Shown here: in pieces, positions 44,418 through 44,980 of the stretch | How the letters are laid out: each line of letters opens with the position of its first letter | Numbering within the stretch: position 1 is the stretch's first letter | Assembly (NCBI GenBank): GCA_946549035.1 | Contig: CAMNQH010000009.1 | Coordinates: forward strand, 1-64,000 | Direction of reading: 5' to 3' | Source of the DNA: an uncultured Lachnospiraceae bacterium | GTDB taxonomy: Bacteria; Bacillota; Clostridia; Lachnospirales; Lachnospiraceae | Length of the DNA: 64,000 bases | The notes under the pieces: generated by a model | What the model was told of the DNA's origin: nothing | Database searches by the model: none | The model's input: the letters and a program-made list of their open reading frames with translations, nothing else | Made by a program: the position numbers and the translations under genes

Positions 44418-44696
44418 TTATTTCTTGGCCCGGGCCTGTCTGCGCTCTTCCATAAGGATGGCCTTAATCTTGCTTTTGGCTTCCGGGGAAAGCTCCCTGT
44501 CCTTGTAATACGTTGTTTCATTGCCTGGCTCCGCAGCCATGCCATACCGTTGTAATGCAGAGCTTCTTACAACGTTCATCGTTTTAGGCGCATCTACCAG
44601 AATCCGTAAATTGCCTGTACTCCCTCCGGTAAACACCAATTTAATTTCCTCCCCGATCAGCAAATACTCACCTGGCTTTACTGTCAGCTTCAGCAT
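44418..44696 (-). CDS. csrA: CsrA-family carbon storage/translation regulator with C-terminal extension
   Basis: MLKLTVKPGEYLLIGEEIKLVFTGGSTGNLRILVDAPKTMNVVRSSALQRYG aligns with CsrA; AAGGAGG RBS before 44696; flagellin neighbour. Confidence 0.83.
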   Translation of the reverse strand: MLKLTVKPGEYLLIGEEIKLVFTGGSTGNLRILVDAPKTMNVVRSSALQRYGMAAEPGNETTYYKDRELSPEAKSKIKAILMEERRQARAKK

Positions 44697-44855
44697 AAAA
44701 ACCTCCTTGTTTGCGCTCCCTGTAGAAAACAGGACTCCCCTTTGGAGAAATGAGCCTGATACAACTATTTTTTCAATTTGTTGCATGAAGCCTCAAAACC
44801 ATAAAAGGATCAGACTTTTGCCAAAGAATTTTTTTGATTTTTTTCATAAAAGGGG

Positions 44856-44882
44856 TTAAGTACTGGACAGAACGTCCGATAA
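44856..44882 (+). promoter_or_regulatory. Sigma-28 (SigD/FliA)-type promoter candidate
   Basis: TTAAGTAC-N11-TCCGATAA versus consensus TAAAGTTT-N11-GCCGATAA. Confidence 0.55.
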
Positions 44883-44888
44883 TATAAG

Positions 44889-44940
44889 TGTAAGGAAGTA
44901 TGCAACAAATTGAAAAGTTTGTTGTATGCGTTTTTTATTT
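44889..44940 (+). ncRNA. Candidate short RNA: promoter-proximal hairpin with T-run terminator
   Basis: GTATGCAACAAA-ttgaaaag-TTTGTTGTATGC-g-TTTTTTATTTT (12-bp stem with two G-U pairs) beginning about 10 nt after the predicted start; no plus-strand gene upstream. Confidence 0.4.
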
Positions 44941-44951
44941 TATGGCAAACG

Positions 44952-44980
44952 AAAAAGCAGGCGGCCGACGGCCGCCCACA
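44952..44980 (-). terminator. Intrinsic terminator downstream of the 45064-45480 gene
   Basis: GGCGGCC-gtc-GGCCGCC then TGCTTTTTCG on the minus strand. Confidence 0.7.

What the first reader, a model, noticed from the sequence alone, without database searches (positions are those of the whole stretch)
44856..44940. Sigma-28-type promoter driving a ~50-nt hairpin/terminator RNA next to csrA and flagellin
On the plus strand, TTAAGTAC-N11-TCCGATAA closely matches the motility sigma factor consensus (TAAAGTTT-N11-GCCGATAA). About 10 nt after the expected start comes a 12-bp stem (GTATGCAACAAA/TTTGTTGTATGC, two G-U pairs) with loop TTGAAAAG and a T-run. No plus-strand gene lies upstream to need this terminator, and the promoter points away from csrA. 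A tiny motility-co-regulated RNA is the simplest reading. It also carries a GGA (AAGGAAG) before the stem, so CsrA titration or antisense action on the csrA leader are possible.
Basis: partly seen in the sequence, partly recalled or inferred. Interest (0 to 1): 0.68.

Follow-up and report, generated by a model that had tools for sequence, protein, structure and literature searches.

The report
Invertible flagellin promoter in gut bacteria
The promoter-plus-hairpin that looked like a tiny RNA gene is one end of a flippable DNA segment that probably switches a flagellin operon on and off in Lachnospiraceae, and in nearly every relative sequenced it sits in the off position.

Summary
In detail: a sigma-28-type promoter (44856-44882) followed by a hairpin and T-run (44898-44938). 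The hairpin, however, is one arm of a 28-bp inverted repeat (44759-44786 / 44900-44927; 25 of 28 bases) that flanks the promoter. Each arm is built like a tyrosine-recombinase site: two inverted arms around an asymmetric spacer, as in loxP. The same module, fliC <- csrA <- [site | (recombinase), sigma-28 promoter | inverted site], occurs in dozens of Lachnospiraceae. The two sites of a locus share their spacer, while spacers differ between loci (0.93 identity within a locus, 0.52 when sites are permuted). A 192-aa tyrosine recombinase usually lies inside the segment; in the window's genome it is encoded elsewhere. Two relatives carry the promoter facing csrA; for one, a related species with collinear flanks has the segment inverted. 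Assembly fold-backs and a graph branch fall at such sites. Best reading: a phase-variable sigma-28 promoter for csrA-flagellin, here in the OFF orientation. Inversion in the window organism itself is inferred, not shown.

The parts
44759..44786 (-). csrA-side recombination site (site L), read on the minus strand ATGCAACAAA-TTGAAAAA-ATAGTTGTAT
   Evidence: inverted repeat, 25/28 to site R; the same position is conserved in relatives
   Evidence: in the seven module-bearing genomes the site motif is found almost only at csrA/flagellin loci, recombinase loci and contig ends (two sites in other contexts), control pattern 0
44787..44899 (.). predicted invertible segment of 113 bp between the sites; no recombinase gene inside
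   Evidence: short segments of 113-125 bp also in five other loci, others carry the recombinase inside
44856..44882 (+). sigma-28-type promoter TTAAGTAC-N11-TCCGATAA, now pointing away from csrA (OFF)
   Evidence: conserved in relatives with the -10 element mostly 15-21 nt before site R
44898..44938 (+). hairpin plus T-run: intrinsic terminator of the OFF-facing transcript (predicted RNA about 44889-44938)
44418..44696 (-). csrA paralogue (92 aa), first gene of the switched operon
   Evidence: PF02599, 54.6 bits against a cut-off of 27; canonical csrA-fliW lies elsewhere, at G000:C36
42182..44188 (-). flagellin (668 aa), downstream of csrA on the same strand
   Evidence: PF00669 and PF00700; no forward sigma-28 promoter found within 420 bp upstream
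44957..44979 (-). separate intrinsic terminator of the facing minus-strand gene; not part of the element

Best explanation
It is a DNA-inversion switch. Two inverted 28-bp sites flank a sigma-28 promoter upstream of csrA-fliC. A small tyrosine recombinase, encoded inside the segment in most relatives but elsewhere in this genome (G000:C27:42682-43263), is proposed to bind the ATGCAACA/TGTTGCAT arms and exchange strands within the shared asymmetric spacer, inverting the segment. In the orientation seen here (OFF) the promoter reads away from csrA and its transcript should end after about 50 nt, because the distal site plus its outside T-run forms an intrinsic terminator. In the inverted (ON) orientation the same promoter would read through the weaker csrA-side site, which lacks a T-run, into csrA and flagellin. 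Shown by sequence comparison: the sites, their inverted spacer match, the promoter, the terminator asymmetry, the recombinase with catalytic residues, and both orientations among relatives. Inferred: inversion in this organism, which recombinase acts here, and the effect on flagellin expression.
For: (1) Inverted repeat flanking the promoter, 0 of 1000 shuffles as good. (2) 47 csrA loci with both sites: spacer-core identity between the two sites, inverted, 0.934 within a locus against 0.516 +/- 0.025 (maximum 0.641 of 10,000 permutations) when sites are swapped between loci; in the 35 loci with 29-nt sites the six central positions are identical in every locus. (3) This csrA type and a close recombinase (E below 1e-85) occur in the same 7 of 61 relatives; recombinase hits in other genomes are weaker (best E 1.2e-72). 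PF00589 match; R, K, H-x-x-R conserved in 83/83, H and Y in 82/83 sequences. (4) Orientation: 49 OFF and 1 ON by motif, plus one ON by eye, G001:C40. L165 (ON) and L160 (OFF), two Roseburia sp. MAGs, align on both flanks with the recombinase-promoter segment inverted and the ends at the sites. (5) Population signals: two G002 contigs overlap by exactly 141 bp and part at a site; contig ends lie near the recombinase in 16 of 80 loci against 4.25 expected, P about 1e-5; in L125, the locus of a related recombinase, the segment is joined at both ends to the same flank. (6) Terminator asymmetry: at least 5 T of 8 beyond site R in 39/47, beyond site L in 1/47; hairpin -16.4 against -9.7 kcal/mol in the in-silico ON junction.
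Against: No read-level or strain-level evidence of both orientations at the window locus itself; the contig runs through it unbroken. The in-window segment lacks a recombinase gene, and the in-trans enzyme's own upstream site has a different spacer. Only 2 ON orientations were found, so switching may be rare or strongly OFF-biased. The L165/L160 comparison is between species. Expression effects are untested. The site arms and promoter pattern were defined from these same loci.
Confidence: 0.91

Rival explanations
1. A sigma-28-driven small regulatory RNA of about 50 nt, acting on csrA, by CsrA titration or on flagellar mRNAs; the inverted copy in the csrA leader would be its target or a relic.
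For: Promoter and terminator hairpin are conserved; Rfam has no family for it, so an undescribed RNA is possible.
Against: Loop and spacer sequences are nearly unique per locus but match the inverted partner site; GGA mostly absent; a recombinase gene usually lies between the two hairpins; segments occur inverted.
Confidence: 0.05
2. A fixed insulator: the hairpin is only a terminator that stops sigma-28 transcription from a promoter of no further importance, and the inverted repeat is a chance duplication.
For: Strong hairpin plus T-run at the distal side only; the OFF orientation dominates.
Against: Does not explain the second inverted site, the spacer match confined to each locus, the recombinase, or the ON examples.
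Confidence: 0.02
3. A mobile element (recombinase cassette or its recombinase-less derivative) that inserted upstream of csrA; inversion is incidental.
For: Segments vary in cargo and length (113 to 2216 bp), and paralogous recombinases sit at other kinds of loci.
Against: The element is tied to csrA-flagellin over many genera with promoter and sites at fixed positions, and the flank comparison shows inversion rather than gain or loss.
Confidence: 0.04

Closest known systems
Salmonella Hin / fljBA flagellar phase variation (hixL-hin-promoter-hixR)
   Same: Invertible segment that carries its own recombinase gene and the promoter of a flagellin operon that includes a flagellin regulator; flagellin ON or OFF by orientation (established knowledge; review PMC11868660).
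   Different: Hin is a serine invertase; here the enzyme is a 192-aa tyrosine recombinase with loxP-like sites, the neighbouring regulator gene is a CsrA paralogue, the distal site is also a terminator, and in the window the recombinase is in trans.
Clostridioides difficile flagellar switch (RecV)
   Same: Tyrosine recombinase RecV required for inversion of a short stretch (154 bp) flanked by imperfect inverted repeats upstream of flagellar genes (PMC7446863); the size is close to the window's.
   Different: There the switch lies in the flgB leader, downstream of the transcription start, and Rho ends OFF transcripts; here the promoter itself inverts and an intrinsic terminator at the site would end the OFF transcript.
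E. coli fimS with FimB/FimE
   Same: Small tyrosine invertases inverting a promoter segment; weak profile similarity to the invertase models NF007371 and NF007370.
   Different: Scores are far below the family cut-offs (49.7 against 222 bits); target is flagellin, and the recombinase is often inside the segment.
Invertons catalogued in bacterial genomes (PhaseFinder, PhaVa; named in PMC11868660)
   Same: Promoter between inverted repeats, recombinase-mediated.
   Different: I found no open-access paper describing this csrA-flagellin family; catalogue tables were not available to check.

Membership tests
Invertible promoter (inverton) | Promoter flanked by inverted repeats | tested here: met
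Invertible promoter (inverton) | Both orientations exist at the locus | tested here: inconclusive
   Not seen at the window locus; seen between related species and as one ON among three paralogous loci of G001; assembly fold-back at a related recombinase locus
Invertible promoter (inverton) | Crossover sites share a spacer | tested here: met
   window spacer TTGAAAA identical in both sites
Invertible promoter (inverton) | A dedicated recombinase is present | tested here: met
   in trans in the window genome, G000:C27; in cis in most relatives; activity not tested
Tyrosine recombinase | Phage_integrase domain with catalytic R-K-H-x-x-R-H-Y | tested here: met
   PF00589 94 bits; catalytic columns; XerA/XerD by sequence in PDB
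FimB/FimE-type DNA invertase (NF007371) | Score above the curated cut-off | tested here: not met
   49.7 against 222 bits
Sigma-28 promoter | -35 and -10 elements with 11-nt spacing as in the clade | tested here: met
   B. fibrisolvens sigma-28 -35 TAAA, -10 MCGATAa cited in PMC3720852
Sigma-28 promoter | Dependence on sigma-28 in vivo | not testable with these tools
   needs 5' RACE and a sigma mutant
CsrA-titrating RNA (CsrB/RsmY type) | Several exposed GGA motifs in loops | tested here: not met
   one GGA before the stem in the window; GGA in 14/49 leaders and 3/49 sites of relatives; no Rfam hit
Serine-invertase (Hin/hix) switch | Serine recombinase | tested here: not met
   the recombinase found at these loci is PF00589; the genome was not searched for serine recombinases

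The most novel reading that the evidence does not exclude
A widespread flagellin phase-variation system of Lachnospiraceae in which a small tyrosine recombinase inverts sigma-28 promoters of csrA-flagellin operons, locus-specific spacers let several flagellin loci in one cell switch independently without cross-recombination, and the distal site doubles as a terminator that is strong only in the OFF state. Flagellins of these gut commensals would be OFF in most cells by genetic design.
Probability: 0.6. Interest if true: 0.8.

Novelty: new variant of a known kind. Interest (0 to 1): 0.72.

Why it matters
Lachnospiraceae flagellins are major gut antigens, with antibody responses reported in Crohn's disease and chronic fatigue syndrome (PMC11285207, PMC11580831). 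If csrA-flagellin operons across the family are controlled by invertible promoters that sit OFF in almost all assemblies, then having a flagellin gene says little about making flagellin, and orientation in metagenomic reads becomes a direct readout. It also gives a testable case of many heterospecific sites (same arms, different spacers), in some genomes perhaps served by one recombinase, and of a recombination site that doubles as a state-dependent terminator.

Tried and rejected
Small RNA as the main function: rejected because loop sequence is not conserved across loci and is instead matched to the partner site. CsrA titration by GGA: not conserved. Known RNA family: no Rfam hit in the window. 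A repeat or MITE family: the site motif occurs almost only at csrA/flagellin and recombinase loci and contig ends in seven genomes, two sites excepted, control pattern 0. Plain drift after duplication: the spacer should diverge faster than the arms, the reverse is seen. Searches failed on a frame error of mine and were repeated. L170 first looked ON; on inspection its promoter faces away from csrA and only the recombinase gene is turned. The recombinase tree shows that csrA linkage is clustered but not one clade; L094, L113 and L116 carry the wrong label there because I had removed duplicate loci.

Full report
1. What is in the sequence. The promoter TTAAGTAC-N11-TCCGATAA (44856-44882, +) and the hairpin with T-run (44898-44938) are present as described. 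The hairpin is strong for its composition (z = -6.9). That repeat matches in 25 of 28 positions; the best in 1000 dinucleotide shuffles of the intergenic region was 21. The repeats bracket the promoter. Each has two inverted arms (ATGCAACA...TGTTGTAT) around the asymmetric spacer TTGAAAA, the layout of a tyrosine-recombinase site such as loxP or FRT (architecture compared from general knowledge).

2. The same module in relatives. A DNA search of 98 related genomes found homologous csrA loci in the same genus and family with the promoter and hairpin on the far side, and in several a 192-aa ORF between the two hairpins. It is a tyrosine recombinase: PF00589, 94 bits; XerA/XerD-like in PDB by sequence; catalytic R, K, H-x-x-R in 83 of 83 relatives, H and Y in 82 of 83. 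Among 61 genomes the csrA type and a close recombinase (E below 1e-85) occur in the same seven. The window genome has one such recombinase, at G000:C27:42682-43263, with a site of the same kind about 30 bp before its start codon but a different spacer. In the seven genomes the site motif TGCAACA-N12/13-TGTTGYA turns up almost only at csrA/flagellin loci, recombinase loci and contig ends, with none for the reversed control pattern; G013:C4:25005-25031 and the single site G003:C176:206-232 are not explained.

3. Statistics on named genomes. A scan of 84,980 species genomes with the recombinase alignment returned 80 loci, mostly Lachnospiraceae. Most show fliC <- csrA <- [site | recombinase, sigma-28 promoter | site]. 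In the 47 csrA loci where both sites could be placed by their arms and position, without using the spacer, the inverted spacer cores agree at 0.934; permuting sites among loci gives 0.516 (sd 0.025, maximum 0.641 in 10,000). In the 35 loci with 29-nt sites, six central positions are identical within every locus but only 0.29-0.63 identical between loci, while the outer half of the site is near the between-locus level. Unconstrained drift would give the opposite; strand exchange that needs matching overlap explains it.

4. Orientation. By motif, 49 loci have the promoter facing away from csrA and one (L165) facing it; nine could not be classified by motif. Of these nine, G001:C40 faces csrA by eye, while two other csrA loci of the same genome face away. 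L165 and L160, two Roseburia sp. MAGs, align collinearly on both flanks (csrA-fliC side and distal side) while recombinase and promoter are inverted, with alignment ends at the sites. In a sample chosen by csrA, not by recombinase, 20 of 25 loci had the recombinase nearby and all loci with a recognised promoter (19) were OFF; this sample overlaps the first. The OFF excess is a fact about assemblies, which report the majority state; whether it reflects switching bias, selection in the gut or something else is open.

5. Signs of mixed populations. In G002 the contig carrying the recombinase and the contig carrying the flagellin overlap by exactly 141 bp and part at the end of a site; 141 is a usual largest k-mer of a common metagenome assembler (general knowledge), so this looks like a graph branch. 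Contig ends fall within 600 bp of the recombinase in 16 of 80 loci against 4.25 expected. In L125, a non-csrA locus of the same recombinase family, the segment is joined at both ends to the same 110-bp flank in opposite orientation, as expected if both orientations were in the sample. These are indirect.

6. What the hairpin does as RNA. Beyond the outer end of the distal site, 39 of 47 loci have at least five T in eight bases; beyond the csrA-side site, one of 47 (Wilcoxon p = 4e-9). The distal hairpin averages -16.4 kcal/mol; the junction expected after inversion averages -9.7. So the OFF-facing transcript should end at the site and the ON-facing one should pass into csrA.

7. Context. The operon CsrA (92 aa) is a second paralogue; a canonical csrA next to fliW lies at G000:C36. 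A second flagellin at G000:C4 has no sigma-28 match close upstream. The likely effect is ON/OFF expression of this flagellin together with its own CsrA; how that CsrA acts is unknown.

8. Known or new. Works like: Salmonella Hin (recombinase and flagellin promoter inside the invertible segment), C. difficile RecV flagellar switch (short segment, tyrosine recombinase; PMC7446863) and fimS. It is not Hin (other enzyme class) and fails the curated cut-off of the FimB/FimE-type family. Literature searches in open-access papers found no description of this csrA-flagellin family; subscription papers and inverton catalogue tables were not checked, so some of these loci may already be listed. Verdict: a new variant of a known kind.

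Noticed in passing
L125 (JAAWEL010000089.1, contig start) 1-137 and 915-1051: Recombinase segment joined at both ends to the same flank in inverted orientation; a clade of related recombinases at non-csrA loci (L122, L127, L147, L151, L166 and others) also has matched inverted sites, so other genes may be switched the same way.
   Followed up: partly
G003:C176:206-232 (L091): A single site between a flagellin leader and a CBS/nucleotidyltransferase gene (probable flagellin-glycan synthesis), without recombinase or second site; in G000:C27 and G002:C3 the recombinase sits there.
   Followed up: partly
L010, L012, L015 and others, between csrA and fliC: A TAATAA...CCTAGGG...TTATTATA stretch recurs in the csrA-fliC intergenic region and looks like a hairpin with a conserved loop; possibly a CsrA target or leader element.
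   Followed up: no
L101, L096, L065 (G001:C40): Invertible segments of 2-3 kb between the sites; the one in L065 holds extra genes (an AAA-ATPase-like ORF) besides the recombinase, the others were not annotated.
   Followed up: no
L170, L208, L215, L220, L223: The recombinase gene inside the segment is turned relative to the usual arrangement, and in several of these the site arms are changed to GTAACA/TGTTAC.
   Followed up: partly
G000:C4:95211-95624 (L180): The window genome's other flagellin has no recognised sigma-28 promoter just upstream.
   Followed up: partly
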